This document shows positions 10,399-64,000 of a stretch of DNA of 64,000 bases, one piece after another. Under the pieces are notes generated by a model. The model searched no databases. It saw only the letters and a list, made by a program, of their open reading frames with translations, and was not told the origin of the DNA. Every line of letters begins with the position of its first letter. The first letter of the stretch is position 1. This DNA comes from Lactarius indigo (Eukaryota; Basidiomycota; Agaricomycetes; Russulales; Russulaceae): the NCBI GenBank assembly GCA_025766275.1, contig JAFKAC010000036.1, forward strand, positions 539,785 to 603,784, in the 5' to 3' direction. The position numbers were made by a program, and so were the translations under genes.

Positions 10399-13300
10399 AG
10401 AGCTGACAGGGAGGCCAATTCAATGTATAGTGTTCGAGATAGTGCTATGACAATCAAAGTCCTCGTTCGCCTTTACTACAAAGAAGCTCGCATAAATGTG
10501 CTGCTGGACAGCGGTGCAACAGACAACCTAATCGACCGAAACCTAATCCAAAAACTTGGACTAGGAACCACTCCTTTGAAACCACCCAGATTGGTCCGGA
10601 ACGTAGATGGATCGCTAAACAAAGATGGCACCATGACGGAAACATGCCAGTTATGGATAAAAACAGGAGAGGAAGAAACCCCTTTCCAGTTTTTTGTAAC
10701 CAGCCTAGGGGAAGACAGAATGATCTTTGGATACCCCTGGTTTGAACACGAAAACCCAGACATAGACTGGAAGAAACAAGAGCTGAAAGGAGAAGCAGTC
10801 ACCATCCTGACAGGAGGGTACCGCTTCCGAAGAAAGCGACACCAAGAAGCAAAAGCGGCAGCAACCAAAACAACTTTTGACCCAGTAAAAGAAACCACAA
10901 TCCCAGAAGAATACCAGCGCCACAACAAAGTATTCTCAGACGAAGAAGCACAGCACTTTCCCCCAGAAAGAGAAGAAGACCATCCCATCACACTGCGACC
11001 AGATGCACCTAACAAGATCAATTGCAAAATTTACCCTTTGACTCCAGAAGAAGACAAGGAGTTAAAGGCATATCTTGACGAAAACATAGCAAAAGGGTAC
11101 ATCTATGAAGGAAGCTCCCCCTACACTTCCTCCTTCTTCTTCAGAAAGAAAACAGATGGAGGGTTACGCCCTATCCTGGACTACAGACCCCTAAATACTT
11201 GGACAATAAAAGACACTTATCCACTACCTCTCATCTCCGACATCTTAACCAATTTAAATGGGAAAACACTGTTCTCAAAGTTCGATATCAGATGGGGGTA
11301 CCATAACATCCGTATAAAAGAGGAAGACCAGTGGAAGGCAGCCTTCAAGACACCAAGGGGACTGTTCATCCCTCGAGTCATGACCTTCGGCCTCACAAAT
11401 GCACCAGCCACCTTTGCAAGAACCATGAGCAGAATACTCCGACCACTCATGGACAAATACCCCAGGGAACTATTTGTGTATATGGACGATGTCCTGATAG
11501 CCACAGAAGAAGATACAGAGCACCACAGACAAATTGTACACAAGTTCTTGGAAATCTGTGAAAAGGAATCTTATTTCCTCAAAGCATCGAAATGCGTGTT
11601 CAAACAAAGAAAGATCCACTACCTAGGCATTGTCATCGACAGGTCTCAGATCAAAATCGACCCAAAGAAGGTGGAAGGACTAAAGGACTGGCCAAGAGAT
11701 ATCAAGTCAGTCAAACAAGCAAGAAGCGTGTTGGGGACACTAAGTTATCAGCGACCCTTCATCCCCAACTTCGCTCACTTAGCAAGACCCATCACGGACA
11801 CAATAAAGACATCAGAAGGCCCCTTCAGATGGACAAAAGAAGCAACAGAAGCCCTAGAAACTCTCATCACGCTTGTGTGCAAAGACCCCATCTTATGTCA
11901 ACCAGATATGGACAAACCTTTCGAACTAGAAGTAGATGCCTCCGCTTTCGCCACAGGAGCAATCTTAACACAAAGAGACAGCCGAAACAAACCACAAGCT
12001 GTGGGATACTTCTCCAAATCATTTTCAGAAGCGGAGCGCAACTATGACATCCATGACAGGGAACTCCTGGCAGTAATCAGAGGACTAGAACACTGGAGAC
12101 ACCTTCTGTTAGGGTCCCCCCACGAAATCACAGTGTTTACAGACCACAAAAACCTAGAATATTATCGCCACCCTCGACAAATCAATAGAAGAGTGGCACG
12201 AAACATCCCCAGACTTGCGGACTATCACATCAAACTTCACCACAAACCCGGACCCCAGAACCATGCAGATGCCCTGTCAAGACGCCCTGACCATGACACC
12301 GGAGCAGGAGATAACACTGATGTGGTGGTCCTGACCCCAACTATCTTCGCAAACTCCGCTCTCTCCATAAGGATAGATGACCGGGTCATGGCACACCAAT
12401 TAGACCACCAAGACACTCTGAACAAGTGGGCTGCCCCCTTCCACCTGATAAAACAAGGCAAACACTGGTGGAAAGGCGACAAACTGGTGGTTGTGGACAA
12501 CACACCGCTAAAGAGGGGGGTAATTTCCCTGTTTCACGATACAAAAACAGCTGGACACCCTGGAATAACAAAGACCTCATGGTTAGTGTCACAAGACTTT
12601 TGGTGGCCAAACATGAAAGACGACATATCCGCATATGTAAAGGGCTGTGCCACATGCCAATCAAACAAGAACTTCCCTGGGAACCCAAAACCACTGATAT
12701 TCCCCATCAAGACTAACCCAGAAGCACTCCCTTTTGAAACCATCGCTCTAGACTTCATCACAAAACTACCCCAATCAGAAGACAATGACACAATTCTCAC
12801 CATCACGGATCATGACTGTTCCAAAGCAGCCTTCTTTATCCCATGCAGCAAAACAATAGATGCAGAAGGAGTGGCAAAACTCTATGCCAAAACTGTCCTG
12901 CCACACTATGGACTACCAAGAAGGGTCATCTCAGACAGAGACCCCAGATTCACAGCGAAGTTCATCAAAGAACTATGCAGAGTGCTCGACATAGAACAAA
13001 ACATCAGCACAGCATACCACCCACAAACAGACGGACAATCAGAGTGAACAAACCAGTAGCTAGAGCAGTACCTCCGAATGTTCATAAACCACCAACAAAA
13101 CAACTGGACGGAGCTACTACCACTGGCACAGTACACCCACAACTCCTGGCCAAGTGCAACCACTAAAAAGGCACCCTATGAGTTAATTCTCGGGTACATC
13201 CCAAGAGTACACCAGCCAGAAAGAACGACCACAGTGCCAGGAACACAAGAAAGACTAGAGCGAATCCAGGAAGCCAGAAGAACTGCCCAAGCAGCAATTA

Positions 13301-13501
13301 CTCATGCACAGTCACTCTACAAAGGATCCTCTTGCTTTGAACAACACACAGAAGGAGATAGTGTGTGGCTAGACGCCAGGAACTTGAAAACAACGCACCC
13401 TAGTTTCAAGTTAGCCCCAAAAAGATATGGACCCTTCAGGGTCACAAAGAAGATCTCTGCCACCACATATGCCCTTCCTCATCAGTGGCAGATCCACCCA
13501 G
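10396..13501 (+). pseudogene. Element B pol: protease, RT, RNase H, integrase
   Basis: Order: protease LLDSGATDNLID (near 10505), RT with FVYMDDVLIA (near 11475), RNase H with EVDASAFATGA (near 11930) and TDHKNLEYY, integrase zinc domain (CATCQSNK near 12650) and core (ALDFITKLP, TDHDCSKAA, HPQTDGQSE). Stops at 13045 (TGA, normally Arg) and 13058 (TAG, normally Trp in this motif) break the integrase. It reads on to IHP at 13500, where element C is inserted. The pol frame lies at -1 relative to gag and opens just before the gag stop. Intact members of the family would make a gag-pol fusion or restart at the ATG at 10422. Confidence 0.9.
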
Positions 13502-13955
13502 TGTCACGAACCTATAATTCGGTCGTGACTCAAGGGCGCTTAGGACCGGCCCGCGTCGGACCGGTCTTATGTAATCACCTTCCTAAAGGGGAATTCCGAA
13601 TCGGAGTTTGAATTCTGTTCTCAAACGATCACGTGATCAGTCACGTGATCAGTCACGTCCCTCAAGCCACGTGTTGTGTACACGTGTACTTATCAACAAG
13701 TTGATTGTTGATCAATCAACGAAGATAATCATCCAAGTCATCACCCCTCGGGGATTCCCGCATTGACTGCGGAATCATGCCATTCTGACGCAAGATTGCG
13801 CCATCGACTGCGGCGCAGCCGTTCTATGTTTAAACCTCTTTCGATTGGACTCTATTGTTAGATGTCTCTAGAATGTTCCTTTGCGCAGTACTGCGCAGCA
13901 CCCGTGGACAGGCCCTAAGCCTGCCCTAAACCTACGCACAGACCACCCCCTGTAG

Positions 13956-13963
13956 TATATAAG
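13956..13963 (+). promoter_or_regulatory. Element C core promoter (TATA box)
   Basis: TATATAAG, 35 nt before AGACTGTCCA. The same spacing (33-35 nt) between a TATA box and an AGACT- or GTCT-type initiator is seen in all five gypsy lineages of the window, which supports the start prediction. Confidence 0.7.
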
Positions 13964-14151
13964 CTGGTGCAATTCTACGGACAGTCCCTCAGACTGTCCA
14001 CTTGTGACATCTTCCCTCTTGCCTCTCAGCTCCTTCGAGTGTCCCACCTTGTGTGTGCCGCTATCCTCTTTGAGTCAAGAACGCCTTCTCTCCGCGTCTT
14101 CCATCCTCTCTCTGTTCCCGCCTCGCCCGCCGTCGTCTTCAACGTATCCCT

Positions 14152-14169
14152 CGCTGTCGAGTGACAGTG
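14152..14169 (+). promoter_or_regulatory. GAGT-loop hairpin 1 (end of U5)
   Basis: Arms CGCTGTC and GACAGTG, loop GAGT (14159-14162), with one G-T wobble. In element D's 5' LTR the wobble is A-T (arm CACTGTC), so pairing is kept. It lies just before the primer-binding site, and the ORF1 frame can begin at the GTG inside it. Confidence 0.6.
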
Positions 14170-15483
14170 AGTTCACCACACTTGGACAGTCTCTCTAATA
14201 GACTGACCTCGGGCTTCCCAGTGTCTGACTACAACTACGAGTACGACTTCTCGCAGTACGGTCAGTGGGACGGAGACTCTGCCAGCTACCAGTCGGAGTT
14301 CGACAACCAAGGTAGCCCCCTCGACTTTTCCCGCGCCTCCCCTATTCCCTCCACCTCTGCTGTCCGTCTTGACAGCCTCCGCTTCACCGCCCCCTACACC
14401 CCCGCCACCTTCGGTGGTGACGAGCCCCCTGCCCCTGTTGCCCTTGTTCGGGACGCAACCCCCGAACTAGTTTATCCCTACGCTCCGGCTGAAGAAGCCA
14501 CCCCTCGTCCATCCCCTCGTCCCTTGTCCCCCAGTACCGCCCAGTTCTACGAAGAGGTCCTCGAGATCATCGACCTCAACGGGAACGTTGTCCCCTTGTC
14601 CCCTGAACCCCGCGCTGAGTCTGCGCCCCCCCTCCGAGTCCCGACCCCCCGCCCCCCCATTTCCCTTCGTGGCTCTCCTTCGCCACCTCCTGTTCTTCCT
14701 CCGACTCCTCGTCACTCTCCGTCTCCTGTTCCGGTCCCCTCCCGCCTTGCAACCCCCGACTCGCCGATTGACTACGAGCGAGTAGCAGAACAAGGCCCCG
14801 TCTTCCCTCCGGCCCCGCACCCCGAACAAGAGAACCTTCCCCCCCTCGGTCCCACCGCCTACCAGGCCCCCCCTTGTCTCCTTCACCAAGGAGAACACCC
14901 CCACCAGTACATCGCGGTCGTTACCCCTCAAGGAGAATCTTGGCGGCCCGCCTCCACCACACTCCGGGAACTTATCACTAAGATCCCCCTCGCCACCTCC
15001 CTTGTCTCTTTTCCTCCAGTTTTCCCTTCTGTCACCCCCTTCCGTCTTCTTCCCCCTCACGTCTACACCCTTTTCCCGCGCATTGTTGACCCTGCTCAAC
15101 ACCCCGACTTCCCTCCCCTGTACATCTGTTCGAAGGCCATCTACGACCTTCCCTCTCCCGACACCCCTTTCGGGACTATCCGCTACGACTTCAGGGAAGG
15201 ACTGAGACGCGCTTTCGCCCCCCTTGCTAACGTCCACAGGGCAGGGTACATTGACTCTCTAGTGACACTAGAGATCCAGGACTTTTTGGACGGAAGGATT
15301 GTAACCACTTACGGACACTTGCGCTTTTCTTTTAACGGACAAATTTACGCTTACCACCAGGCCTATTTCTTTGAGGACTTGGTTCGTTCCGCCTCCCACC
15401 TTCTTGCTTACTGTCTTTCGCCTCGAATTCCTGCCGACCCCTTTAGTTTCATTTCCACCTTTCCCGACGATCAGCCACTTTAG
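14161..15483 (+). CDS. Element C ORF1: proline-rich protein without any methionine
   Basis: Open for 440 codons from a GTG inside the U5 hairpin to TAG at 15481. A second GTG at 14221 (VSDYNY) aligns with the start of the same frame in element D. No ATG occurs in any frame. Residues 1 to about 250 are Pro/Ser-rich and likely disordered. The C-terminal 130 residues look folded (YDFREGLRRAF, then RFSFNGQIYAYHQAYFFEDL). A short block PIDYERV, followed by PP and acidic residues, resembles the post-pol protein of families 1, 3 and 4. Function unknown. Differences from D favour silent codon positions by eye, so a protein appears to be selected. How it is started without AUG is open. Confidence 0.65.
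   Translation: MTVSSPHLDSLSNRLTSGFPVSDYNYEYDFSQYGQWDGDSASYQSEFDNQGSPLDFSRASPIPSTSAVRLDSLRFTAPYTPATFGGDEPPAPVALVRDATPELVYPYAPAEEATPRPSPRPLSPSTAQFYEEVLEIIDLNGNVVPLSPEPRAESAPPLRVPTPRPPISLRGSPSPPPVLPPTPRHSPSPVPVPSRLATPDSPIDYERVAEQGPVFPPAPHPEQENLPPLGPTAYQAPPCLLHQGEHPHQYIAVVTPQGESWRPASTTLRELITKIPLATSLVSFPPVFPSVTPFRLLPPHVYTLFPRIVDPAQHPDFPPLYICSKAIYDLPSPDTPFGTIRYDFREGLRRAFAPLANVHRAGYIDSLVTLEIQDFLDGRIVTTYGHLRFSFNGQIYAYHQAYFFEDLVRSASHLLAYCLSPRIPADPFSFISTFPDDQPL
14183..14192 (+). promoter_or_regulatory. Element C primer-binding site, self-priming type
   Basis: TGGACAGTCT, two bases after the LTR, is the exact reverse complement of AGACTGTCCA at the predicted RNA 5' end (13991-14000). The pair is identical in elements D (38002-38011 and 38197-38206) and F (63448-63457 and 63639-63648). 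Confidence 0.75.
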
Positions 15484-15591
15484 ATAAGTGGTTATATATT
15501 TGCCTTGTCTTGAAACGAGTGTTTTAAGTGCAACGCAAAGTAAGTAAGTGTTTACTTATTTGGGTTTTTGGACTTAAGTCGAGTGATTTAA
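15484..15591 (+). promoter_or_regulatory. ORF1-ORF2 gap with two GAGT-loop hairpins
   Basis: About 108 nt with no ATG. Hairpin 2 is at 15509-15528 (arms CTTGAAAC and GTTTTAAG, loop GAGT). Hairpin 3 is at 15572-15593 (arms ACTTAAGTC and GATTTAAGT, loop GAGT). A third stem with loop GTGT (arms TAAGTAA and TTACTTA) lies between them near 15541. Element D has the same gap; in hairpin 3 a G-T pair is A-T there. GTAAGT at 15540 could be a splice donor, but splicing from there would not remove the stops upstream. Confidence 0.6.
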
Positions 15592-16575
15592 GTGCCTCCT
15601 TCTACTCCGTTTACCTTCAACTTATCTGAAGAACAAAGGCTCGCTCGAGCCCGAGTTAACTTCGAATCCCACAGGCAGCGGCAGCTTGACCGCTATTACC
15701 CCATCACTTCCACTTACGACCTCATTGATAACCCTCGTCTTGACTGTTGGACAGAACCCCCTACCGCCTTACGTGCCCTTATCGACCTTTTTGACTTCGG
15801 AGAAGTCATCCCCGAAAGGGTTTACCACGAGTTCATTGACGATCTTTCTGAAGTCGTCAAGGCTGCCGACGAGCAACTCTTGTATTGGCACCTTTCAAAC
15901 TCCGTCTCTGCCACCAACCATCCAACAGACCAACTCCTAGTGTGGACCAAAAGCGACTACCTTTGGTTTGTCCACGTTCCCCCTCGTCGTGACCACTACG
16001 TCCGGCAACTCGAAGACGGCTTCTCTCTTCACTTTGTCGACCGACTCCGCCTCACATATCAGGAAATACAGATTTCCTTCCAAGAAATCCGAGTGGTCAT
16101 TCACCCTGACTCCGCCCCCCGCCTAGTCATCTCTGATAGTTCGGAACTCACTTATTCTTTCGCCACCTCTGTGTGGGAAACTACCCTGTCCAACCCTGAC
16201 AGGAACCTGGTCAACCCGAGTATCTGGCACTACCCCCCTTCTACCTCTGACGACCCAGAGTTAGTCTCAATTCTCAACGCTAGAGAAACTTTCCGGACTC
16301 CACCCCTGCTCCGCCGAATTACAGATCGGCTTCCCCCTAGTTCCCCTGAAACTGAAGACGAATCTTCAGACTCCGACATCTCCCTACATAACGGAGATAC
16401 CAACCAGCCGCCTAGTCCTAACGACGGTTGGGGACCAACTCTAACCTCAGGCCCCTGTTGGTGCTCTCAAGAAGTCTGCACCTGCGGTTATCGTCCCAAC
16501 ACCCCCCCGACACCCCCAAACGTAGTATTGTGGTCCCCTGGAATTAACTATCTACCTTATAGAGAAAAGGTCTAG
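15592..16575 (+). CDS. Element C ORF2: unknown protein without any methionine
   Basis: Opens right after a TAA at 15589-15591 with GTG and runs 327 codons to TAG, in the same frame as ORF1. No ATG occurs in any frame. The middle is rich in aromatic and basic residues (DYLWFVHVPPRRDHYVRQL). The C-terminal end has an acidic Ser tract (DESSDSDISL) and a cysteine cluster CWCSQEVCTCGY near residues 290-305. About a dozen residues differ from D, while most nucleotide changes are silent by eye. No family recognised. Confidence 0.62.
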   Translation: MPPSTPFTFNLSEEQRLARARVNFESHRQRQLDRYYPITSTYDLIDNPRLDCWTEPPTALRALIDLFDFGEVIPERVYHEFIDDLSEVVKAADEQLLYWHLSNSVSATNHPTDQLLVWTKSDYLWFVHVPPRRDHYVRQLEDGFSLHFVDRLRLTYQEIQISFQEIRVVIHPDSAPRLVISDSSELTYSFATSVWETTLSNPDRNLVNPSIWHYPPSTSDDPELVSILNARETFRTPPLLRRITDRLPPSSPETEDESSDSDISLHNGDTNQPPSPNDGWGPTLTSGPCWCSQEVCTCGYRPNTPPTPPNVVLWSPGINYLPYREKV

Positions 16576-16584
16576 ATAGTATAG

Positions 16585-16623
16585 ATTGTCGAGATAAATT
16601 TTACGAGTGTAAAATTTGACAAT
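16585..16623 (+). promoter_or_regulatory. GAGT-loop hairpin 4 between ORF2 and ORF3
   Basis: Outer arms ATTGTC (16585-16590) and GACAAT (16618-16623), inner arms AAATTTTAC and GTAAAATTT, loop GAGT at 16605-16608, bulge GAGAT on the 5' side. This gives 15 base pairs in all, identical in element D at 40596-40634. The ORF3 frame opens in its 3' arm. Confidence 0.68.
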
Positions 16624-17308
16624 TTTCCGAGTCAAAACTCTGGATCCAATTCATTGGGCAATCAACCTGGCATCTTCACACGTTGCCCAAAGAAGAACTC
16701 ATCGTCGCTTCCAAGTAGACGATCGGCCCATAGCCTCCACCCCGAGTACCCCTGTAACCCCAAGAAGGGCCCCCCGAGCTCGTCGAGCTACCAACACCCA
16801 GATCCCCCTCCCAAGTATTAACCAAGCTGGTCCGAGTGAACCAGTGTACCCCAGTATCCAAGCAACCCCGACTGCAAGGCAGCATTCCACGAGCAGTGAC
16901 GAAGCTCAGTATCTTGAAACCCAACCCCGAGAAATCCATTGTCATCTCCCTGAGGCTATCTTAGTAACCAAGAGCCTACCAACCCGAACCCCCCGAGAAC
17001 TCGACGTGTTCAGAAGGCACTGTTCTCTGCTGTACCAAAACCGGCACAATCTTGAAACCCTGTATTTTTCCCAACCGCTTACGCGCATAAGCGAGGTTTC
17101 GACAAGCCCCTTGTATTTCCAAGACTTCTTGTGGAGAAGTAAGACAACCCTGACCCACTTTGGTATTTGGGAAGAATACCATTGGATCCGTCGTTCACAA
17201 AGACCCCATCGTCCGGATAGAGCTATCCTCCTCCCCGCATACAAAGTCTACTACCCCTGGAACCTAGACAGTTGGACTGTCACCCGCCTCACCAGAACAG
17301 GTGAATGA
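16616..17308 (+). CDS. Element C ORF3: basic protein without any methionine
   Basis: 230 codons, no ATG in any frame. A CTG at 16640 has A at -3 and G at +4, and this context is kept in element D, so it is the best start candidate. The N-terminal third is Arg-rich (AQRRTHRRF, PRRAPRARRA). The C-terminal half is rich in Trp, Tyr and Arg. It ends GGTGAATGA, so its TGA overlaps the first gag ATG by four bases, a stop-start arrangement compatible with coupled re-initiation. Function unknown. Confidence 0.62.
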   Translation: MTIFRVKTLDPIHWAINLASSHVAQRRTHRRFQVDDRPIASTPSTPVTPRRAPRARRATNTQIPLPSINQAGPSEPVYPSIQATPTARQHSTSSDEAQYLETQPREIHCHLPEAILVTKSLPTRTPRELDVFRRHCSLLYQNRHNLETLYFSQPLTRISEVSTSPLYFQDFLWRSKTTLTHFGIWEEYHWIRRSQRPHRPDRAILLPAYKVYYPWNLDSWTVTRLTRTGE

Positions 17309-18855
17309 ACACACAACGACCCCTCACACCAGAAGAAAAAGCCCACGTCCCCGTATACTTCTTCGATCCCTATTTTTCTCTCACCGATAATCTTTACTAC
17401 GCCAAGTGGAAAGAAGAAGACATCTCCAGTCCTACTGGGAAACACCCGTGGACGGTTGTCGCCACCCAGCACCAAATTGTTTTTCAAGACCTTAAAGAAG
17501 CCTTTCCTGGTATCGACAAGGTCAAGGACTTAAACTACAATTCCCTACACGCCACTTTCAAAGGAAAGAACGTCCGTTGGAACTTTGTAACCGAACAGTG
17601 GATCTACCTAAACAACAAACCAGTCCATTTTAACACACCTAGTGAATCCGAAGATTCAGACAGCGACACAGAGGAAGTATCGCAAATCCTAGAAACCACT
17701 ACCAAGAAACTCTCCGGCCTACTATCCCAAGTAACCTCCCGACCCTCGACACCCCAGATTTCCCCTAGTACCTCCGGCCCTAGCCGTCTCCCTGCACCAG
17801 TTCCACCACAGCGACTCCCGTCACCACCCCTAACTGTCCAAACCTCTTCCTCAGTACCTCCCTTATCCGTTCCTCCTGTACCCACTGCAATGGCAGCCCC
17901 TGCTCCCGCAAAAATCCTAGGAGCAGCACCCGAACCCTTCGACGGAAAGCCTGATAAAGCAGAAGCTTTCTGGAATAATTTGGCAAATTATTTTCACCTG
18001 AACAGTTCTATCTTCGACACCGATGATAAGAAGATTTCCACGGCCCTTACCTACTTTAAGGTGGGCACCTCTGCGGGCGAGTGGGCCCAGGATAGGCAAA
18101 AGAAAGCCTTAAATCCGACCGGCGGAGCCGCCGTTTCCTTTGGAACGTGGGCAACGTTCAAATCTGACTTTAACAAACACTTCGTCCCCGCTCATACGGC
18201 TATGGAAGCCACAAACAAGATGTATACCATGAAAATGGGCACTCGTCCGTTCAACGAGTGGTTCCAAGAATGGTCCACCCATGCCCAACGAAGTGGCGCA
18301 AATGAGCAAACAAAGATGTATGCTTTCCGACAAGCTATTCCAACCGCCTTGAACATGAAGTTGCTCGGCGTATCCCCCTTACCCACGACCTTCGACGACC
18401 TCGTAGAGAAAGCGAGGGAGTTTGACCGCGTCTATCAAGTCTACGCTGGTCACGCCATTAACCAGTTTAACAAGACCCATAAGCCCACCACAGGACGAGC
18501 CGTCCTAGCAGAGGACGATAGCGTTAATGTCAACGCCTCCTCATCACGTACTACCAAACCAAGAAACAAGCTTACCAAGGAAGAGCGAGAGTATCGCTTC
18601 AAAAATAAACTCTGCCTGTACTGTGGCAAGCCAGGTCACGTACTTAAAGAATGTCACGCCAAGACGGCAGCTATGAAGGCCAAAGGAGGCCAATCCAACA
18701 ACAACGCTAGGGCGCATGGCGCCTTTGTTGATGAACCAAGTCAGGAGGAAGCACCTGCTGACCACCCAGCAAACATTGGAGCGATATATCGAGAGATACT
18801 CCCTTTTGACCCGGGCGCACGTCCGCGTTCGGTGCCTATTAATGAGGATTTTTAG
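17305..18855 (+). CDS. gag: Element C Gag
   Basis: 516 codons from ATG 17305, which has a weak context (T at -3). The next ATG in any frame is 17890 (GCAATGG, strong context), at the start of the Gag core (MAAPAPAKILG), and it may be the main start. N-terminal residues 1-195 form a Trp/Tyr-rich segment with an acidic Ser tract (SESEDSDSDTEE). The core contains WNNLANYFHL and RPFNEWFQEW. The knuckle CLYCGKPGHVLKEC is near residue 437. It ends GAT TTT TAG, with pol open in the -1 frame. Confidence 0.9.
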   Translation: MNTQRPLTPEEKAHVPVYFFDPYFSLTDNLYYAKWKEEDISSPTGKHPWTVVATQHQIVFQDLKEAFPGIDKVKDLNYNSLHATFKGKNVRWNFVTEQWIYLNNKPVHFNTPSESEDSDSDTEEVSQILETTTKKLSGLLSQVTSRPSTPQISPSTSGPSRLPAPVPPQRLPSPPLTVQTSSSVPPLSVPPVPTAMAAPAPAKILGAAPEPFDGKPDKAEAFWNNLANYFHLNSSIFDTDDKKISTALTYFKVGTSAGEWAQDRQKKALNPTGGAAVSFGTWATFKSDFNKHFVPAHTAMEATNKMYTMKMGTRPFNEWFQEWSTHAQRSGANEQTKMYAFRQAIPTALNMKLLGVSPLPTTFDDLVEKAREFDRVYQVYAGHAINQFNKTHKPTTGRAVLAEDDSVNVNASSSRTTKPRNKLTKEEREYRFKNKLCLYCGKPGHVLKECHAKTAAMKAKGGQSNNNARAHGAFVDEPSQEEAPADHPANIGAIYREILPFDPGARPRSVPINEDF

Positions 18856-22000: not shown

Positions 22001-22463
22001 TACCCACTTCACCACCAAAATACCCGCAGCCGAGGAAAGATTAAATGCACTAAATCAAATCCGCTCCGAAGTTACCGCAGCCCTTAAGGTAGCAGCGGAA
22101 GTCATGAGAATGTCAAAAACACCCACCCCCTCTCATGAATTCAAGACAGGCGATTTAGTCTGGCTGGAAGGAACCAACATCCATACTACCCACCCCAAAG
22201 CTAAGCTCGCCCCACGACGCCACGGCCCCTTTAAAGTCCTTTCTACCTGGGGAGTCAATTGCAAGCTCCAACTCCCCAAGACGTGGCGCATCCACCCAGT
22301 CTTCCATAACTCCTTGATCTCTCCATACAAAGAAAACACCACGCATGGTCCTAACTTCACCAGACCACCCCCCGAAATTGTCCAAGGGGAAGACGAACAC
22401 TATGAAGTCGAAAAGGTCCTGCAGTCAAAGGTATCGCCCAACAAGAAGGCATACTTTACCTGA
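19050..22463 (+). CDS. pol: Element C Pol, frameshifted in the chromodomain
   Basis: The frame is open from the gag stop. Protease LLDSGAEGIIVDD (near 19050), RT with VVYLDDILIF (near 20210), RNase H with LITDASDFATGA (near 20655) and SDHGNLVYF, integrase zinc domain (HDHIATGHPG and CATCQTTK) and DDE core (TMDFITDLP, VVVDRLSKA, HPQTDGETERVNQ). A chromodomain starts at HYEVEKVL near 22400. Relative to D one G is missing near 22448, so the frame ends early. The rest of the chromodomain (IKWKGYPDSENSW) is still readable in another frame to about 22615. Catalytic residues look intact. Confidence 0.93.
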   Translation: MDSGAEGIIVDDGFARANNLTMRTLIKPLPVRNVDGSPNKTGSVRYTTIQRLRIRTSDDNYHDETVELYATTLGEHDIILGTDWLRAHNPEIDWHQPKIAFTRCPRTCTLSSSAVVISSKLPQTRHTTINILELDSDQEACLPVNDEIEPLEPTFIQDACEPWLWIHSFNKYDHLAIRSKVTTSTKIAARTAPKPSIDHIPSHFQRYTKVFSEIASHRLPQHQPWDHAIDLKPGATMKNCGIYRLTPKESDALKEYISEHLKKGYIRSSKSPMASPFFFVDKKDGKLRPVQDYRALNDITIKNAAPLPLIPELIDKLHGARYFTKLDIRWGYNNIRIREGDEYKAAFKTSLGLFEPTVMTFGLCNAPATFQTFMNQIFESLIDGGHVVVYLDDILIFTEDISSLTALTHDVLQRLERHDLYLKPEKCTFAQTSVEYLGIIIADGQVSMDPAKVAGITQWPTPRTVKQVQAFLGFCNFYRRFIKDYSTIARPLFDLTKKDVPFSWDTAAESAFRTLITCFTKAPVLALPDHSKPFRLITDASDFATGAILEQPDALQRWHPVAFLSKSLLPAERHYEICDKELLAIIHALHAFRHYLEGRDDVTEIWSDHGNLVYFTTKQKLSRRQARWALFLSRFQFIIIHKPGTQNKSDALSRRPDHKKGIADEDEKRVLLDTKYFSINAVQKTAVTIQGDTTLRQRIKNTQTYDKEVSMALESLLKNGPRSLAKGLEEWNLEDGIILFKGQVYVPKDDNLRRDIVKTYHDHIATGHPGRWKTYELISRDFWWPGISTFVKTYVDGCATCQTTKIKPRTQVPLQPNAIPEEIWGTITMDFITDLPLSHNYDSLFVVVDRLSKAIIISPCNKTITADETAQLYLENVWRRTGLPRQVISDRGPQFASKVMQEIWNKLGVKSTLSTAFHPQTDGETERVNQELEQYLRVFCNFQQDNWVDLIPFMEFAHNARQHSATHKSPFEVWYGYKPEFIPPTHFTTKIPAAEERLNALNQIRSEVTAALKVAAEVMRMSKTPTPSHEFKTGDLVWLEGTNIHTTHPKAKLAPRRHGPFKVLSTWGVNCKLQLPKTWRIHPVFHNSLISPYKENTTHGPNFTRPPPEIVQGEDEHYEVEKVLQSKVSPNKKAYFT

Positions 22464-22615
22464 TTAAATGGAAGGGGTATCCCGACTCCGAGAATTCCTG
22501 GCTCCCTGCCTCTCAAATGTCCCACGCCCAAGACCTTGTCCAGCGCTTCCACAAGGACAACCCCTCCGCCCCTCAACCAAAGAACACTAGTGCTCGTGGA
22601 ATAGCACAGCGTTAA
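22464..22615 (+). pseudogene. Element C chromodomain remainder, out of frame
   Basis: Encodes the second half of the chromodomain (LIKWKGYPDSENSW) and a tail ending just before the polypurine tract, shifted by the single-base loss near 22448. Element D carries the intact version. Confidence 0.8.
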
Positions 22616-22623
22616 AAAGGGGA
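22614..22623 (+). promoter_or_regulatory. Element C polypurine tract
   Basis: AAAAAGGGGA, three bases before the 3' LTR, the usual place for plus-strand priming in LTR elements. The same tract is next to the 3' LTR of D. Confidence 0.75.
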
Positions 22624-22626
22624 TAC

Positions 22627-23306
22627 TGTCACGAACCTATAATTCGGTCGTGACTCAAGGGCGCTTAGGACCGGCCCGCGTCGGACCGGTCTTATGTAAT
22701 CACCTTCCTAAAGGGGAATTCCGAATCGGAGTTTGAATTCTGTTCTCAAACGATCACGTGATCAGTCACGTGATCAGTCACGTCCCTCAAGCCACGTGTT
22801 GTGTACACGTGTACTTATCAACAAGTTGATTGTTGATCAATCAACGAAGATAATCATCCAAGTCATCACCCCTCGGGGATTCCCGCATTGACTGCGGAAT
22901 CATGCCATTCTGACGCAAGATTGCGCCATCGACTGCGGCGCAGCCGTTCTATGTTTAAACCTCTTTCGATTGGACTCTATTGTTAGATGTCTCTAGAATG
23001 TTCCTTTGCGCAGTACTGCGCAGCACCCGTGGACAGGCCCTAAGCCTGCCCTAAACCTACGCACAGACCACCCCCTGTAGTATATAAGCTGGTGCAATTC
23101 TACGGACAGTCCCTCAGACTGTCCACTTGTGACATCTTCCCTCTTGCCTCTCAGCTCCTTCGAGTGTCCCACCTTGTGTGTGCCGCTATCCTCTTTGAGT
23201 CAAGAACGCCTTCTCTCCGCGTCTTCCATTCCTCTCTCTGTTCCCGCCTCGCCCGCCGTCGTCTTCAACGTATCCCTCGCTGTCGAGTGACAGTGAGTTC
23301 ACCACA
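22627..23306 (+). repeat. Element C 3' LTR
   Basis: 680 bp, apparently identical to the 5' copy except for one extra T in the run near 23229. Followed by the CCCAG duplication, after which the pol frame of element B resumes. Confidence 0.95.
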
Positions 23307-23598
23307 CCCAGTATTCCACGCATCCCTCCTGATGCCATACAAAGAAACCTCCATATGTGGAAAGAACTTTACGGAACCACCCCCAGATCTAGTAGATGGA
23401 GAACAGGAGTGGGAAGTCGAGAAAATACTAGAGACAAGACGCCACAGGAACCAGTTACAGTTCCTAATCAAGTGGAAAGGATACTCCGATGCACACAATA
23501 GCTGGGAACCAGAAAAGAACCTCAACGCCCCAGAACTTATTCAGGAACACTTTGAAAGCAACCCCAGAAGCGAAGGAGCAAAGCAATGGTTAAAATGA
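23307..23598 (+). pseudogene. Element B pol, chromodomain end
   Basis: Continues B Pol after element C: VFHASLLMPYKE, then a complete-looking chromodomain (EWEVEKILETR, FLIKWKGYSDAHNSWEPE). The frame joins exactly to 13500 once C and one CCCAG are removed. Chromodomains guide integrase to methylated histone H3 in related chromoviruses. The stop is at 23596-23598, 51 nt before the next ORF. Confidence 0.9.
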
Positions 23599-37498: not shown

Positions 37499-38194
37499 TG
37501 TCACGAACCTATAAACCTGGTCGTGACTCAAGGCGCTTAGGACCGGACCGGACCGGACCGGGCTTATGTCATCAGCTTCCTAAAGGGGAAATCCGAAATC
37601 GGAGTTTGAATTTCACTCTCCAACGATCACGTGATGTGTCACGTGATTACTCTGCCTTTCCAAGTCACATGTGTACATGCACGTGTATCAATCAACAGTT
37701 GATTGTTTATCAATCAACGAAGATAATCAACCAAGTCACAAGGAACACGTGTGCTGATCACGAGTTCCGCAGTAGCTGCGGAATCACACCACTATGGCGC
37801 AATATGGCGTCATTGACTGCGGCGCAGTCGTACCATGCTTATCCTTTATTCTGATTGGACAGTATTAATAACTTGTCTCTGGAATGTTCCAATCCGCAGT
37901 TTTGCGCAGCACCCGTGGACAGGCCCTAAGCCTGCCCTAAACTTACGCACAGACCACCCCCTGTAGTATATAAGCTAGCGCAATCTATCGGACAGTCCCT
38001 CAGACTGTCCACTTGTGACATCTTCCCTCTCTTGCCTCTCAGCTCCTTCGAGTGCCCCACCTTGTGTGCGCCACTATCTTCTTTGAGCCAAGACGCCCCC
38101 TCTTTGCCCCCTTCGATGCTCTCTCCGTCTCTACCTCGCCCGCCGTCGTCTTCAACCGTATCCCTCACTGTCGAGTGACAGTGAGTTTACCACA
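37499..38194 (+). repeat. Element D 5' LTR
   Basis: 696 bp, same ends as C. It carries a short tandem GACCG run near 37542-37560, the TATA box and initiator AGACTGTCCA (38002-38011). One ATG near 38115 stands where the 3' LTR has ACG. The GAGT hairpin at its end is fully paired. Confidence 0.93.
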
Positions 38195-38233
38195 CTTGGA
38201 CAGTCTCTCATAGACTGACCCCGGGCCATTCCA

Positions 38234-39495
38234 GTGACCGACTACAACTACGAGCACGACTTCTCGCAGTACGGTCAGTGGGACGGAGATTCCGCCAGCT
38301 ACCAGTCGGAGTTCGACAACCAAGGTAGCCCCCTCGACTTTTCCCGCGCCTCCCCTATTCCTTCCACCTCCGCTGTCCGTCTTGACAGCCTATGCTTCAC
38401 CGCCCCCTACACCCCTGCCACCTTCGGTGGTGACGAGCCCCCCGCCCCTGTTGCCCTTGTTCGGGACGCAACCCCCGAACTAGTTTATCCTTACGCTCCG
38501 GCTGAAGAAGCCACCCCTCGTCCTTCCCCTCGTTCCCTGTCCCCCAGTGTCGCCCAGTTCTACGAAGAGGTCCTCGAGATCTTCGACCTCAACGGGAACC
38601 TTATCCCCTTGTCCCCTGAACCCCGCGCTGAGTCTGCGCCTCCCCTCCGAGTCCCGACCCCCCGCCCTCCTATCTCCCTTCGTGGCTCTCCTTCGCCACC
38701 TCCTGTTCTTCCTCCGACTCCTCGTCGCTCTCCGTCTCCTGTTCCGATCCCCTCCCGCCTTGCGACCCCCGACTCGCCGATTAACTACGAGCGAGTAGCG
38801 GAACAAGGCCCCGTCTTCCCTCCAGCCCCTCACCCCGAACAAGAGAACCTTCCCCCCCTCGGTCCCACCGCCTATCAGGCTCCCCCTTGCCTCCTTCACC
38901 AAGGAGAACACCCCCACCAGTACATCGCCATCGTCACCCCCCAAGGAGAATCTTGGCGGCCTGCCTCCACCACACTCCGGGAACTTATCACTAAGATTCC
39001 CCTCGCCACTTCCCTTGTCTCTTTTCCCCCGATTTTCCCTTCCGTCACCCCTTTCCGTCTTCTTCCCCCCACATTTACACCCTCTTCCCACGCGTCGTTG
39101 ACCCTGCTCAACACCCCGACTTTCCTCCTTTGTACATCTGTTCCAAGGCCGTCTACGACCTCCCTTCCCCCGACACCCCCTTTGGAACTATCCGCTACGA
39201 CTTCAGGGAAGGCCTGAGACGTGCCTTTGCCCCCCTTGCTAACGTCCACAGAGCAGGGTACATTGACTCTCTAGTAACCCTAGAGATCCAGGACTTCTTG
39301 GACGGGAGGATTGTGACCACTTACGGACACTTACGCTTTTCCTTTAACGGACTAATTTACGCTCACCAGCAGGCTTACTTTTTTGAGGACTTAGTTCGTT
39401 CCGCCCCCCATCTTCTTGCCTATTGCCTTTCCCCTCGACTTCCTGCCGACCCCTTTAGTTTCATTTCTACCTTTCCCGACGACCAGCCACTTTAG
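38234..39495 (+). pseudogene. Element D ORF1, frameshifted
   Basis: Homologue of C ORF1 from GTG 38234 to TAG at 39493. One base is lost near 39070, so the frame moves (38234-39217, then 39130-39495). The only ATG in this leader (near 38392) replaces CCG of element C, a change that includes C-to-T at a CpG. Confidence 0.75.
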
Positions 39496-39602
39496 ATAAG
39501 TGGTTATATATTTGCCTTGTCTTGAAACGAGTGTTTTAAGTGCAACGCAAAGTAAGTAAGTGTTTACTTATTTGGGTTCTGGACTTAAATCGAGTGATTT
39601 AA

Positions 39603-40586
39603 GTGCCTCCTTCTACTCCATTTACCTTCAACTTATCTGAAGAACAAAGGCTCACACGAGCCCGAGTTAACTTTGAGTCCCACAGACAGCGGCAACTTGA
39701 CCGCTATTACCCCGTCACTTCCACTTACGACCTCATCGATAACCCCCGTCTTGACTGTTGGACAGAACCCCCTACCGCCTTACGTACCCTTATCGACCTC
39801 TTTGACTTTGGAGAAGTCATCCCCGAAAGGGTTTACCACGAGTTTATTGACAATCTTTCTGAAGTCGTCAAGGCTGCCGACGAACAACTCCTTTATTGGC
39901 ATCTTTCAAACTCCGTCTCTGCCACCAACCATCCAACAGACCAACTCTTAGTGTGGACCAAAAGCGACTATCTTTGGTTTGTTCACGTTCCCCCTCGTCG
40001 TGACCACTACGTCCGGCAACTCGAAGACGGTTTCTCTCTTCACTTTGTTGACCGACTCCGCCTCACATACCAGGAAATACAGATTTCCTTCCAAGAAATT
40101 CGAGTGATCATTCACCCCGACTCCGCCCCCCGTCTAGTCGTCTCCGATAGCTCAGAATTCACTTACTCCTTCTCCACCTCTGTGTGGGAAACTACCCTAT
40201 CCAACCCTGACCGGAACCTTGTCAACCCGAGTAACTGGCACTACCCCCCTTCTACCTCTGACGACCCCGAGTTAGTTTCGATTCTCAACGCCAGAGAAAC
40301 TTTCCGGACTCCGCCTCTGCTCCGCCGAATTACAGATCGGCTTCCCCCTAGTTCCCCTGAAACTGAAGACGAATCTTCAGACTCCGACGTCTCCCTGCAT
40401 AACGGAGATACTAACCAGCCGCCTAGTCCTAACGACGGTTGGGGACCAACTCTGACCTCCGGCCCCTGTTGGTGCTCTCAAGAAGTCTGCACCTGCGGTT
40501 ATCGTCCCAACACCCCCCCGACACCCCCCAACGTAGTGTTGTGGTCCCCTGGAGTTAACTATCTACCTTATAGAGAAAAGGACTAG
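39603..40586 (+). CDS. Element D ORF2
   Basis: 327 codons, intact, no ATG in any frame, preceded by the same two GAGT hairpins as in C (near 39521 and 39583). Most substitutions relative to C fall in third positions. The cysteine cluster CWCSQEVCTCGY is kept. Function unknown. Confidence 0.62.
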   Translation: MPPSTPFTFNLSEEQRLTRARVNFESHRQRQLDRYYPVTSTYDLIDNPRLDCWTEPPTALRTLIDLFDFGEVIPERVYHEFIDNLSEVVKAADEQLLYWHLSNSVSATNHPTDQLLVWTKSDYLWFVHVPPRRDHYVRQLEDGFSLHFVDRLRLTYQEIQISFQEIRVIIHPDSAPRLVVSDSSEFTYSFSTSVWETTLSNPDRNLVNPSNWHYPPSTSDDPELVSILNARETFRTPPLLRRITDRLPPSSPETEDESSDSDVSLHNGDTNQPPSPNDGWGPTLTSGPCWCSQEVCTCGYRPNTPPTPPNVVLWSPGVNYLPYREKD

Positions 40587-40626
40587 ATAGTATAGATTGT
40601 CGAGATAAATTTTACGAGTGTAAAAT

Positions 40627-41319
40627 TTGACAATTTTCCGAGCCAAAACCCTGGATCCAATTCATTGGGCAATTAACCTGGCATCTTCACACGTCGCCCA
40701 AAGAAGAACTCATCGTCGCTTCCAAGTGGACGATCGGCCCATAGCCTCCACCCCGAGTACCCCTGTAACCCCAAGAAGGGCCCCCCGAGCTCGTCGAGCT
40801 ACCAACACCCAGATTCCCCTTCCGAGTATTAACCAAGCCGGTCCAAGTGAACCGGTGTACCCCAGTATCCAAGCAACTCCGACTGCGAGGCAGCATTCCA
40901 CAAGCAGTGACGAAGCTCAGTATCTTGAGACCCAACCCCGAGAAATCCATTGTCATCTCCCTGAAGCTATCTTAGTAACCAAGAGCCTACCAACCCGAAC
41001 CCCCCGAGAACTCGACGTGTTCAGAAGACACTGTTCTCTGCTGTACCAAAACCGGCACAATCTTGAAACCCTGTATTTTTCCCAGCCACTTACGCGCATA
41101 AGCGAGGTTTTGACAAGCCCCTTGTACTTCCAAGACTTCTTGTGGAGAAGTAAGACAACCTTGACCCACTTTGGTATTTGGGAAGAATACCATTGGATCC
41201 GTCGTTCACAAAGACCCCATCGTCCAGATAGAGCTATCCTCCTCCCTGCATACAAGGTCTACTACCCCTGGAACCTGGACAGTTGGACTGTCACCCGCCT
41301 CACCAGAAGAGGTGAATGA
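40627..41319 (+). CDS. Element D ORF3
   Basis: 230 codons, intact, no ATG, opens in the GAGT hairpin at 40596-40634. The CTG with A at -3 and G at +4 is retained near 40651. Its TGA overlaps the gag ATG at 41316, as in C. Confidence 0.62.
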   Translation: MTIFRAKTLDPIHWAINLASSHVAQRRTHRRFQVDDRPIASTPSTPVTPRRAPRARRATNTQIPLPSINQAGPSEPVYPSIQATPTARQHSTSSDEAQYLETQPREIHCHLPEAILVTKSLPTRTPRELDVFRRHCSLLYQNRHNLETLYFSQPLTRISEVLTSPLYFQDFLWRSKTTLTHFGIWEEYHWIRRSQRPHRPDRAILLPAYKVYYPWNLDSWTVTRLTRRGE

Positions 41320-51622: not shown

Positions 51623-51850
51623 AAAAAGGATTAGTCAAGTGAAGTCGCTAAAATAGGACATCAGTCAAGGAAAAGTCAGCTACAAGTCAAGATTTTTGCA
51701 CCAGTCAGACAAAGTCAAGATTTAGTCAACCAAAAATCAATTGAAACTCAGACAAAAATAACAAAAAAAAAACCTTGACTTGGATATTATCCAAGGACAT
51801 AGCTTGGTCAGTCAAAGTCAATGCCAGTCAGTTAAAGTCAAATGAAAATA
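51623..51850 (+). repeat. GTCA-rich patch at the broken end of J
   Basis: About a dozen GTCA or GTCAA motifs at irregular short spacing in AT-rich sequence, with an A-run near 51762. No open frame. Similar subterminal motif clusters occur in some DNA transposons, but no terminal repeats are seen here. Confidence 0.45.
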
Positions 51851-51877
51851 GGGAATAAATTATGGAAAATTGGGAAC

Positions 51878-52950
51878 ATCAGGGTGGGTGTGGGTGTAGA
51901 TGGAATTGGGATGGAGAACATGGGGGTGGGGTGTGGGTGTGATGGGGATATGGGTGGGGAACATGGGGGTGGGTGAGGGGAACATGAGGGTGGGTAAGGG
52001 GAACATGGGGGTGGGGTGTGGGGAACATGGGGGTGGGTAAGGGGAACATGGGTATGGGTGTGGGTGTGGGTGGGATGGGGATGGGGAACATGGGGGTGGG
52101 GTGTGGGTGTGATGGGGATATGGGTGGGGAACATGGGGGTGGGTAAGGGGAACATGAGGGTGGGGTGTGGGGAACATGGGGGTGGGTAAGGGGAACATGG
52201 GTATGGGTGTGGGTGTGGGTGGGATGGGGATGGGAATGGGGAACATGGGGGTGGGCGAGGGGAACATGAGGGTGGGTAAGGGGAACATGAGGGTGGGTAA
52301 GGGGATCATGGGGGCAGGATGTGGGGAACATGGGTATGGGTGGGGGTATGGGTGGGATGGGGATGGGGAACATGGGGGTGGGCAAGGGGAACATGAGGGT
52401 GGGTAAGGGGAACATGGGGGTGGGGTGTGGGGAACATGGGGGTGGGTAAGGGGAACATGGGGGTGGGGTGTGGGGAACATGGGTATGGGTGTGGGTATAG
52501 GTGGGATGGGGATGGGGAACATGGGGGTGGGGTGTGGATGTGATGGGGATATGGGTGGGGAACATGGGGTGGGAGAGGGGAACATGGGGGTGGGGTGTGG
52601 GGAACATGGGTATGGGTGTGGGTATGGGTGGGATGGGGGTGGGGTGTGGGTGTGATGGGGATATGGGTGGGGAACATGGAGGTGGGTAAGGGGAACATGA
52701 GGGTGGGTAAGGAGAACATGGGGGCAGGGTGTGGGGAACATGGGTATGGGTGGGGGTATGGGTGGGATGGGGATGGGGAACACGGGAGTGGGGTGTGGAT
52801 GTGATGGGGATATGGGTGGGGAACATGGGGTGGGAGAGGGGAACATGGGTATGGGTGTGGGTGTGGGTGGGATGGGGAAAGGGAATATGTGTGGGTGTGG
52901 GTGTGGGTGTGGGCAGGATGTGCATGAGTGTGGGGGATGAGGAAGATGAT
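51878..52950. repeat. G-rich minisatellite
   Basis: Tandem degenerate units built from GGGGAACATGGGGGTGGGTAA and GTGGGTGTGATGGGGATATG, about 20-40 bp each. The plus strand is G-rich throughout, with many G-runs able to form quadruplexes. Long minus-strand open frames of Pro-His type are a by-product of the repeat. Confidence 0.85.
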
Positions 52951-62958: not shown

Positions 62959-63636
62959 TGTCACGAACCTATAATTCGGTCGTGACTCAAGGGCGCTTAG
63001 GACCGGCCCGCGTCGGACCGGTCTTATGTAATCACCTTCCTAAAGGGGAATTCCGAATCGGAGTTTGAATTCTGTTCTCAAACGATCACGTGATCAGTCA
63101 CGTGATCAGTCACGTCCCTCAAGCCACGTGTTGTGTACACGTGTACTTATCAACAAGTTGATTGTTGATCAATCAACGAAGATAATCATCCAAGTCACCA
63201 CCCCTCGGGGATTCCCGCATTGACTGCGGAATCATGCCATTCTGACGCAAGATTGCGCCATCGACTGCGGCGCAGCCGTTCTATGTTTAAACCTCTTTCG
63301 ATTGGACTCTATTGTTAGATGTCTCTAGAATGTTCCTTTGCGCAGTACTGCGCAGCACCCGTGGACAGGCCCTAAGCCTGCCCTAAACCTACGCACAGAC
63401 CACCCCCTGTAGTATATAAGCTGGTGCAATTCTACGGACAGTCCCTCAGACTGTCCACTTGTGACATCTTCCCTCTTGCCTCTCAGCTCCTTCGAGTGTC
63501 CACCTTGTGTGTGCCGCTATCCTCTTTGAGTCAAGAACGCCTCCTCTCCGCGTCTTCCATTCTCTCTCTGTTCCCGCCTCGCCCGCCGTCGTCTCCAACG
63601 TATCCCTCGCTGTCGAGTGACAGTGAGTTCACCACA
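62959..63636 (+). repeat. Element F 5' LTR
   Basis: 678 bp, TGTCACG to ACCACA, with TATATAAG near 63413 and the GAGT hairpin near its end. The transcribed part has no ATG. Confidence 0.93.
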
Positions 63637-64000
63637 CTTGGACAGTCTCTCTAATAGACTGACCTCGGGCTTCCCAGTGTCTGACTATAACTACGAGTAC
63701 GACTTCTCGCAGTACGGTCAGTGGGACGGAGACTCTGCCAGCTACCAGTCGGAGTTCGACAACCAAGGTAGCCCCCTCGACTTTTCCCGCGCCTCCCCTA
63801 TTCCCTCCACCTCTGCTGTCCGTCTTGACAGCCTCCGCTTCACCGCCCCCTACACCCCCGCCACCTTCGGTGGTGACGAGCCCCCTGCCCCTGTTGCCCT
63901 TGTTCGGGACGCAACCCCCGAACTAGTTTTATCCCTACGCTCCGGCTGAAGAAGCCACCCCTCGTCCATCCCCTCGTCCCTTGTCCCCCAGTACCGCCCA
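63617..64000 (+). pseudogene. Element F ORF1 start, frameshifted
   Basis: Matches C ORF1 codon for codon until an extra T near 63930 (CTAGTTTTATCC against CTAGTTTATCC), which ends the frame at 63949. The sequence after the indel still matches ORF1 in the shifted frame up to the window edge. No ATG in the visible part. Confidence 0.75.

What the first reader, a model, noticed from the sequence alone, without database searches (positions are those of the whole stretch)
13991..17304. A 3.3-kb transcript leader without a single ATG although it encodes about 1000 codons of open frame
I scanned the sense strand from the predicted RNA start of element C to the gag ATG at 17305 line by line and found no ATG in any frame. 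By base composition tens would be expected. The leader holds three long ORFs (440, 327 and 230 codons) with no internal Met. After the weak ATG at 17305 the next one is 17890, in strong context. Element D keeps the pattern despite many substitutions; its two exceptions (near 38115 and 38392) stand at former CpGs. Avoidance in all frames points to selection on the RNA, for example scanning ribosomes that must reach gag, together with non-AUG or otherwise unusual translation of the ORFs.
Basis: partly seen in the sequence, partly recalled or inferred. Interest (0 to 1): 0.92.

Follow-up and report, generated by a model that had tools for sequence, protein, structure and literature searches.

The report
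Start codons made by RNA splicing
A fungal jumping gene keeps the first 3,300 letters of its RNA free of start signals, and appears to make the missing start signals for its extra proteins by cutting out short introns, so that one RNA can serve as genome or as several different messages.

Summary
Element C's leader has 0 ATG in 3,314 nt (19 expected, minimum 8 in 2,000 shuffles). Twenty further copies have 0-2, and a second subfamily, about 30% different in DNA, largely keeps the pattern. Substitutions made 20 ATGs where 275 were expected (26 related copies). The element is a fungal Ty3/gypsy retrotransposon with Tf1-like self-priming. Its three leader ORFs are real genes (dN/dS 0.03-0.21; indels almost absent inside them, frequent around them). 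Best explanation: the missing start codons of ORF1 and ORF2 are assembled by splicing. Introns 14167-14221 and 15540-15592 each join an exon ending in A to one beginning with TG; donor and acceptor letters are kept in 27 of 27 aligned copies. Published Lactarius gene models use junction 1 in 15 of 25 that hold that part, and junction 2 in 5 models. Intron 1 carries the primer-binding site, so a message without it should not replicate. Unspliced RNA has no AUG before gag; each single splice gives exactly one. ORF3 probably starts at a conserved CUG. Nearly Met-free relatives occur down to about 24-36% protein identity. No RNA data were available: splicing is inferred, not shown.

The parts
13502..14180 (+). 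5' LTR of element C (TG...CA, 679 nt); 3' LTR 22627-23306; CCCAG on both outer flanks
13991..17304 (+). ATG-free leader; 13991 is the inferred RNA 5' end
14150..14171 (+). hairpin H1, loop CGAGTG, 3' arm holds donor 1
14167..14221 (+). predicted intron 1 (ACA|GTGAGT ... CTGAC ... CAG|TG), 55 nt; ATG = A14166 + T14222 G14223
14183..14192 (+). primer-binding site TGGACAGTCT, complementary to the inferred RNA 5' end 13991-14000; lies inside intron 1
14222..15483 (+). ORF1 after the split start codon, 420 codons with the start, no internal Met
15509..15528 (+). hairpin H2, loop CGAGTG, before donor 2
15540..15592 (+). predicted intron 2 (A|GTAAGT ... AAG|TG), 53 nt; ATG = A15539 + T15593 G15594
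15572..15593 (+). hairpin H3, loop CGAGTG, 3' arm holds acceptor 2
15593..16575 (+). ORF2 after the split start codon, 327 codons with the start, no internal Met
16595..16618 (+). hairpin H4, loop CGAGTG, between ORF2 and ORF3 (subfamily A only)
16640..17308 (+). ORF3 from the proposed CUG start (A at -3, G at +4) to its TGA, which overlaps the gag ATG
17305..18855 (+). gag ORF; first ATG 17305, next ATG 17890; PF03732
18846..22463 (+). pol open frame (protease, RT, RNase H, integrase, Tf2-1-like SH3)
38003..41315 (+). leader of element D, second copy in the window, two ATGs (38116, 38392) before the gag ATG at 41316

Best explanation
This is a fungal Ty3/gypsy (Tf1-like, self-priming) retrotransposon whose RNA is polycistronic, with three nearly Met-free accessory genes before gag. 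The unspliced RNA has no AUG before gag, so scanning ribosomes can reach gag (sequence shown; scanning inferred). ORF1 and ORF2 have split start codons: the exon ends in A at both donors and the next exon begins with TG at both acceptors. Removing intron 1 gives AUG-ORF1; removing intron 2 alone, or joining donor 1 to acceptor 2, gives AUG-ORF2; each such message then has one AUG before gag. Removing intron 1 also discards the primer-binding site, so that message should not be copied as genome (inferred). ORF3 most likely starts at a CUG in strong context by leaky scanning (inferred). Donor 1 and acceptor 2 lie in hairpins with one shared loop, CGAGUG, which may hold splicing back so that enough unspliced RNA remains (inferred).
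For: ATG gain 20 observed against 275 expected in 26 copies. Purifying selection on all three ORFs. Indels stop at 14216, 15565 and 16634, just before the proposed starts. Only two near-consensus donors and two in-frame AG|TG acceptors are kept in 27 of 27 copies of both subfamilies, apart from a weak donor at 17163 in 26 of 27. Freeing A|GTG in the genome-wide donor pattern adds no variant to 97 matches; 63 of 64 acceptor-2 matches keep AGTG. Single-splice leaders have exactly one ATG before gag, opening 420 or 327 codons. 15 of 25 Lactarius models that hold this part carry SSD/LSD-M-SDY, the peptide of junction 1, and 5 carry NAT-M-PP at junction 2. CTG at 16640 has A at -3 and G at +4 in 27 of 27.
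Against: No RNA data. No intron-less copy found in the genome, although RNA lacking only intron 2 would keep the primer site. The gene models are predictions of unknown RNA support; 2 of 25 read the acceptor unspliced and 8 of 25 read otherwise (two of these 8 do have M at MSD), and 4 of 9 models with NAT do not continue as predicted. Both exons end in A before GT, not in the usual G. Intron 2 of subfamily A has no clear branch point. ORF3 has no split ATG. A 3.3 kb scan is far longer than the 900 nt of RTBV.
Confidence: 0.8

Rival explanations
1. Pure leaky scanning with near-cognate starts, as in RTBV: ORF1 and ORF2 start at the GTG at their 5' ends (or another non-AUG codon) on unspliced RNA, with no splicing.
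For: RTBV and badnaviruses keep ORFs AUG-free for leaky scanning, with an AUU start (passages). Database callers start ORF1 relatives at GTG in many cases (V first in 45 of 70).
Against: The GTGs of ORF1 and ORF2 lack a purine at -3 in C. It does not explain two donors and two acceptors kept in 27 of 27 copies, nor the junctions in Lactarius models. A GTG is also what an AG|TG acceptor looks like to a gene caller.
Confidence: 0.1
2. The hairpins between the ORFs act as internal ribosome entry, bypass or reinitiation signals, so that each ORF is translated from the full RNA without AUG.
For: Hairpins with the same loop stand before each ORF in subfamily A. ORF3 stop and gag ATG overlap or lie 3 nt apart.
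Against: H4 is absent in 5 of 5 B copies while ORF3 is kept. H1 and H3 contain splice sites, which gives them another role. ATG avoidance inside the ORFs would not be needed.
Confidence: 0.06
3. No function: ATG is rare by composition, protein make-up or CpG decay.
For: The leader is C-rich (1,176 of 3,314) and has few A and G.
Against: Shuffles never fall below 8; ATG gain is about 14-fold below expectation with base, CpG state and codon position held; most ATGs found in copies stand at CpGs of C, so decay adds ATGs; pol has ATG at expectation.
Confidence: 0.01

Closest known systems
RTBV and badnavirus leaky scanning (Caulimoviridae)
   Same: Retroelement with a polycistronic RNA, upstream ORFs devoid of internal AUGs, a non-AUG start and leaky scanning to the main ORF (passages of PMC5902531).
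   Different: RTBV spans 900 nt and two ORFs; here 3.3 kb and three ORFs. RTBV splicing fuses a leader uORF with its own AUG to ORF IV; here no AUG exists until the introns are removed.
Retroviral and LTR-retrotransposon subgenomic splicing (env mRNAs, BARE1, CAEV Rtm)
   Same: Splicing of part of the RNA yields messages for other proteins while unspliced RNA is genome and gag-pol message (passages of PMC9143442 and PMC3735527; abstract of PMC2291067).
   Different: In the passages seen, splicing selects or fuses ORFs or shortens gag; none described a start codon made at the junction. Here the intron also carries the primer-binding site.
MLV glycosylated Gag
   Same: CUG start upstream of the gag AUG on the unspliced RNA (passage of PMC9143442), as proposed for ORF3.
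   Different: Glycogag extends Gag at its N-terminus (recalled); ORF3 is a separate protein that ends at the gag AUG.
Tf1/sushi self-priming Ty3/gypsy elements
   Same: Primer site is the complement of the RNA 5' end (10 nt); Tf2-1-like SH3 domain in integrase. The Tf1 mechanism is recalled.
   Different: Tf1 as recalled has no accessory genes before gag.

Membership tests
Ty3/gypsy LTR retrotransposon | LTRs, gag, and pol in the order protease, RT, RNase H, integrase | tested here: met
Tf1/sushi group | primer-binding site complementary to the RNA's own 5' end | tested here: met
   10 nt exact complement; the RNA 5' end itself is inferred
Tf1/sushi group | chromodomain at the integrase C-terminus | tested here: inconclusive
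   SH3_Tf2-1 hit but no Chromo hit in pol of C; a chromodomain-like stretch lies behind the pol stop in another frame, read by eye
Tf1/sushi group | place in an RT tree | not tested
   no tree was built
RTBV-type leaky scanning | upstream ORFs without internal AUG | tested here: met
RTBV-type leaky scanning | non-AUG start codon of the first ORF | tested here: inconclusive
   ORF1 and ORF2 are better explained by split AUGs; only ORF3 by CUG
RTBV-type leaky scanning | ribosomes shown to scan through to the main ORF | not testable with these tools
   needs translation assays
Spliced subgenomic messages | conserved donor and acceptor sites | tested here: met
   27 of 27 copies
Spliced subgenomic messages | spliced RNA detected | not testable with these tools
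   no RNA data; intron-less genomic copies sought and not found

The most novel reading that the evidence does not exclude
A transposon that writes its start codons by splicing. The genomic RNA is kept AUG-free so that it reads as gag-pol; both donors end in A and both AUG-making acceptors begin with TG, so each forward donor-acceptor pair gives a working start. Removing the primer-binding site with intron 1 marks that message as non-replicating. Shared CGAGUG hairpins at donor 1, before donor 2 and at acceptor 2 form a splicing switch bound by one factor, perhaps one of the accessory proteins. The scheme is old and shared by fungal elements whose ORF1 proteins are only about 24-36% alike.
Probability: 0.5. 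Interest if true: 0.95.

Novelty: new variant of a known kind. Interest (0 to 1): 0.9.

Why it matters
Every retroelement must let one kind of RNA be both genome and message. Here the sequence suggests a compact answer: no AUG for the accessory genes unless spliced, and no primer site once intron 1 is spliced. It would be a natural case in which splicing creates start codons as a switch. It turns about 970 codons that gene finders handle badly into three conserved proteins without a known fold, and it can be tested with RNA from mycelium or fruiting bodies. It also offers a natural test of how far ribosomes can scan without an AUG.

Tried and rejected
Rejected: chance or composition. CpG decay as the cause. 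M against V at the first residue of database relatives as evidence of splicing: apart from P0085 and P0091, relatives marked jgi begin with V or L and those marked ena with M, so this looks like a writing convention for GTG/TTG starts. A split ATG for ORF3: one in-frame A|GTG in C, far inside ORF3, none in four B copies. An ORF2-ORF3 fusion: no near-consensus donor conserved in ORF2. The hairpin loop as an Ire1-type site: it does not fit the consensus as I recall it.

Led nowhere: Pfam for ORF1-ORF3 (E up to 1, no hit); intron-less copies (2 matches, neither makes ATG; no exact match, 48 with 1-2 mismatches against 23 for the reversed control); relatives in viral contigs (none); AlphaFold models (ORF2 mean pLDDT 75.9, pTM 0.60; ORF1 68.0, 0.54) had no Foldseek PDB match with E at or below 0.001 (best 0.026 and 0.37). 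Ten literature searches listed no paper whose title or abstract start describes such an element or a retroelement start codon made by splicing; I read passages of four papers and the abstract and outline of one. The library is open-access only, so this is no proof of absence.
Full report
OBSERVATION. The stretch 13991-17304 has no ATG on the sense strand; 32 are expected from base composition and 19 from dinucleotides, and 2,000 dinucleotide shuffles gave a mean of 19.0 and a minimum of 8. It lies in the longest ATG-free run of the window on either strand; the second longest is the same region of element D. The effect is specific to ATG in sense: CAT occurs 32 times and CTG, GTG, TTG 56, 35 and 58 times. 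In pol of the same element ATG is at expectation (54 against 52) and in the gag core above it (18 against 12), while the 582 nt behind the gag ATG at 17305 have none (2-5 expected).

THE ELEMENT. Element C has LTRs of 679 nt (13502-14180) without a mismatch and with one 1-nt length difference, and CCCAG on both sides. Its pol holds protease, RT, RNase H, integrase zinc-binding and core domains and a Tf2-1-like SH3 domain; gag hits PF03732. The inferred RNA 5' end AGACTGTCCA is exactly complementary to TGGACAGTCT at 14183-14192, the self-priming arrangement known from Tf1 (recalled). The genome has 90.3 Mb in 291 contigs. The named relatives of the leader ORFs are all proteins of Lactarius (6 of 19 for ORF2, 27 of 97 for ORF1), so the host is probably a related mushroom; it was not identified further.

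OTHER COPIES. The ORF2 protein gives 126 matches in the same genome, fragments included. Of its rows, the first 76 have 83-100% identity (70 of them over 300 residues) and 22 near-full rows have 51-57% (counted by eye); the latter are subfamily B, which itself splits into 5 rows at 93-100% and 17 at 63-69% to L060. I fetched 20 A and 6 B leaders; the rest was not read. In the 20 A copies the gag ATG is always kept and the ATG count is 0 in 10, 1 in 7 and 2 in 3; 10 of the 13 ATGs stand at a CpG of C. In B, L059, L060 and L061 have none between the LTR and gag, L062 has 1 and L063 has 4, at about 70% DNA identity to C. With base, CpG state and codon position held, the substitutions that separate 26 copies from C should have made 275 ATGs; they made 20, with permutation P at or below 0.014 in 25 of 26 (300 permutations each; the exception is L039 with 12 substitutions). 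L064 (decayed) was left out of the alignment, and the copies are related, so the 26 are not independent.

THE ORFS ARE GENES. Pairwise dN/dS (Nei-Gojobori) within A is 0.100, 0.054 and 0.035 for ORF1, ORF2 and ORF3; A against B 0.152, 0.214 and 0.082; within B 0.077, 0.204 and 0.028. Copies with a shortened frame were dropped: ORF1 used 22 of 27, ORF2 26 of 27, ORF3 25 of 27; element D is among those dropped for ORF1. Synonymous divergence A-B is high (dS 1.0-2.0), so those ratios are rough. Internal Met is 0 in every frame used except one in ORF3 of L058. Relatives outside Lactarius carry 39 Met in 27,379 residues (ORF1, 70 proteins, 49 of them with none), 3 in 3,940 (ORF2, 13 proteins) and 0 in 1,609 (ORF3, 7 proteins), 0.13% overall; in a 28-row alignment the most distant ORF1 relatives are 24-36% identical to C. 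The ORF1 search scored only the 7,992 candidates sharing most words. The first part of gag is also under protein selection (pN/pS 0.14, 21 copies).

WHERE CODING BEGINS. Over 20 A copies against C there are 93 indels in 231 nt of 5'UTR plus intron 1, 27 in the 112 nt between ORF1 and ORF2, and 14 in the 68 nt between ORF2 and ORF3 (4 of 134 are multiples of 3), against 1 (6 nt), 0 and 0 in ORFs of 1,259, 980 and 664 nt. Indels are counted per copy, so shared ones count again. The last indels before each ORF are at 14216, 15565 and 16634. So the upstream parts of the open frames are not coding, and the starts lie at or shortly behind these points.

SPLIT START CODONS. At 14167 stands ACA|GTGAGT and at 14220 AG|TG, 55 nt of intron, with CTGAC in between in all 28 copies printed. 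Joining gives GAC-ATG-TCT-GAC-TAC, the beginning of ORF1. At 15540 stands A|GTAAGT and at 15591 AG|TG, 53 nt of intron; joining gives ATG-CCT-CCT, the beginning of ORF2. A scan for donors conserved in A and B found three that score at least 3 of 5 in both: these two, each in 27 of 27, and a weaker one at 17163 in 26 of 27. AG|TG is kept in all 27 at seven places: the two acceptors, the loops of H1, H2 and H3, one site in the 5'UTR (14038) and A|GTG of donor 1 itself. Genome-wide, 97 places match the donor-plus-primer-site pattern, and leaving A|GTG free adds none (the flanks were fixed, which favours well-kept copies). For acceptor 2, 63 of 64 places keep AGTG; the other is on a contig without a match. 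Taking out intron 1 leaves one AUG before gag (420 codons), intron 2 alone one (327 codons), donor 1 to acceptor 2 one (327 codons), both introns two. Intron 1 contains the primer-binding site.

INDEPENDENT MODELS. Of the 32 retrieved proteins named as Lactarius, 15 match SSD-M-SDY or LSD-M-SDY by a script; SSD-M-SDY is what TCG AGT GAC A|TG TCT GAC TAC encodes. Two read the acceptor unspliced as V (P0005, P0111), 8 read otherwise (two of them, P0044 and P0060, have M at MSD after another leader), and 7 lack this part. Nine have NAT before the ORF2 start; 5 continue M-PP as predicted for junction 2, 4 do not. These are predictions, and their RNA support is unknown to me. Two relatives, P0024 and P0042, read from the donor's GTG-AGT through HTWTV, which is how the primer site reads in that frame, to the V of the acceptor (by eye, their DNA was not seen).

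ORF3. It has no in-frame split ATG in four B copies. Its coding start fits CTG at 16640, with A at -3 and G at +4 in 27 of 27 copies although the flank upstream varies by indels. Its stop overlaps the gag ATG in C and lies 3 nt before it in B, so gag may also be reached by reinitiation. This part is the least certain.

HAIRPINS. H1 (donor 1), H2 (before donor 2), H3 (acceptor 2) and H4 (between ORF2 and ORF3) share the loop CGAGTG. In the window, CGAGTG with a stem of 4 or more pairs occurs at 11 places, all in copies of this element. The motif of H1, H2 and H3 is found in 27 of 27 (two H2 loops differ by one letter), H4 in 22 of 22 A and 0 of 5 B. Stems vary: H1 has 8 uninterrupted pairs in 16 of 27 and 4 in 11; H3 has 8 in 22 A, and in B 4 or 2 before a one-base bulge. 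By eye, B has C-G where A has T-A next to the H3 loop, and L060 differs from L059 on both sides of a further pair. A role in holding back splicing is a guess from position.

COMPARISON. RTBV scans 900 nt of AUG-free ORFs with an AUU start and splices a leader uORF to ORF IV (passages). BARE1, retroviruses and CAEV show splicing for subgenomic messages, and MLV a CUG start before gag. In what I saw, none combines an AUG-free genome with start codons made at splice junctions.

LIMITS. No RNA data. Intron-less genomic copies were not found, which fits packaging of unspliced RNA only but also fits no splicing. Intron 2 has no clear branch point in A. ORF1 and ORF2 models matched no solved fold; ORF3 was not modelled.

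Noticed in passing
window 22380-22640: Behind the end of pol of element C a chromodomain-like stretch reads in another frame, so the pol C-terminus of this copy looks broken (by eye).
   Followed up: no
window 13060-13501 and 23307-23595: Both flanks of element C read as the integrase end and chromodomain of another element (PF00385 in the right flank): C appears to sit inside its pol.
   Followed up: partly
window 17308-17889: The N-terminal 194 codons of gag behind the first ATG are also free of ATG in any frame; pN/pS 0.14 over the first part in 21 copies. Two gag starts by leaky scanning are possible.
   Followed up: partly
window 18846-18855: The pol open frame begins just before the gag stop in another frame; a frameshift is likely.
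   Followed up: no
ORF2 C-terminus, about window 16450-16560: Conserved Cys-rich motif CWC..EVC.CGYRP.TPPTPP.VVLW.PG in most relatives, which looks metal-binding.
   Followed up: no
window 51822-52855 and 53217-54356: Tandem repeats with periods near 21 and of 105 bases.
   Followed up: no
window 62959-64000: 5' end of a third copy of the family at the window edge, with hairpin H1 at 63614.
   Followed up: no
L063 about 960-1130: This B copy carries H1 and the LTR end twice, a local duplication in the leader.
   Followed up: no
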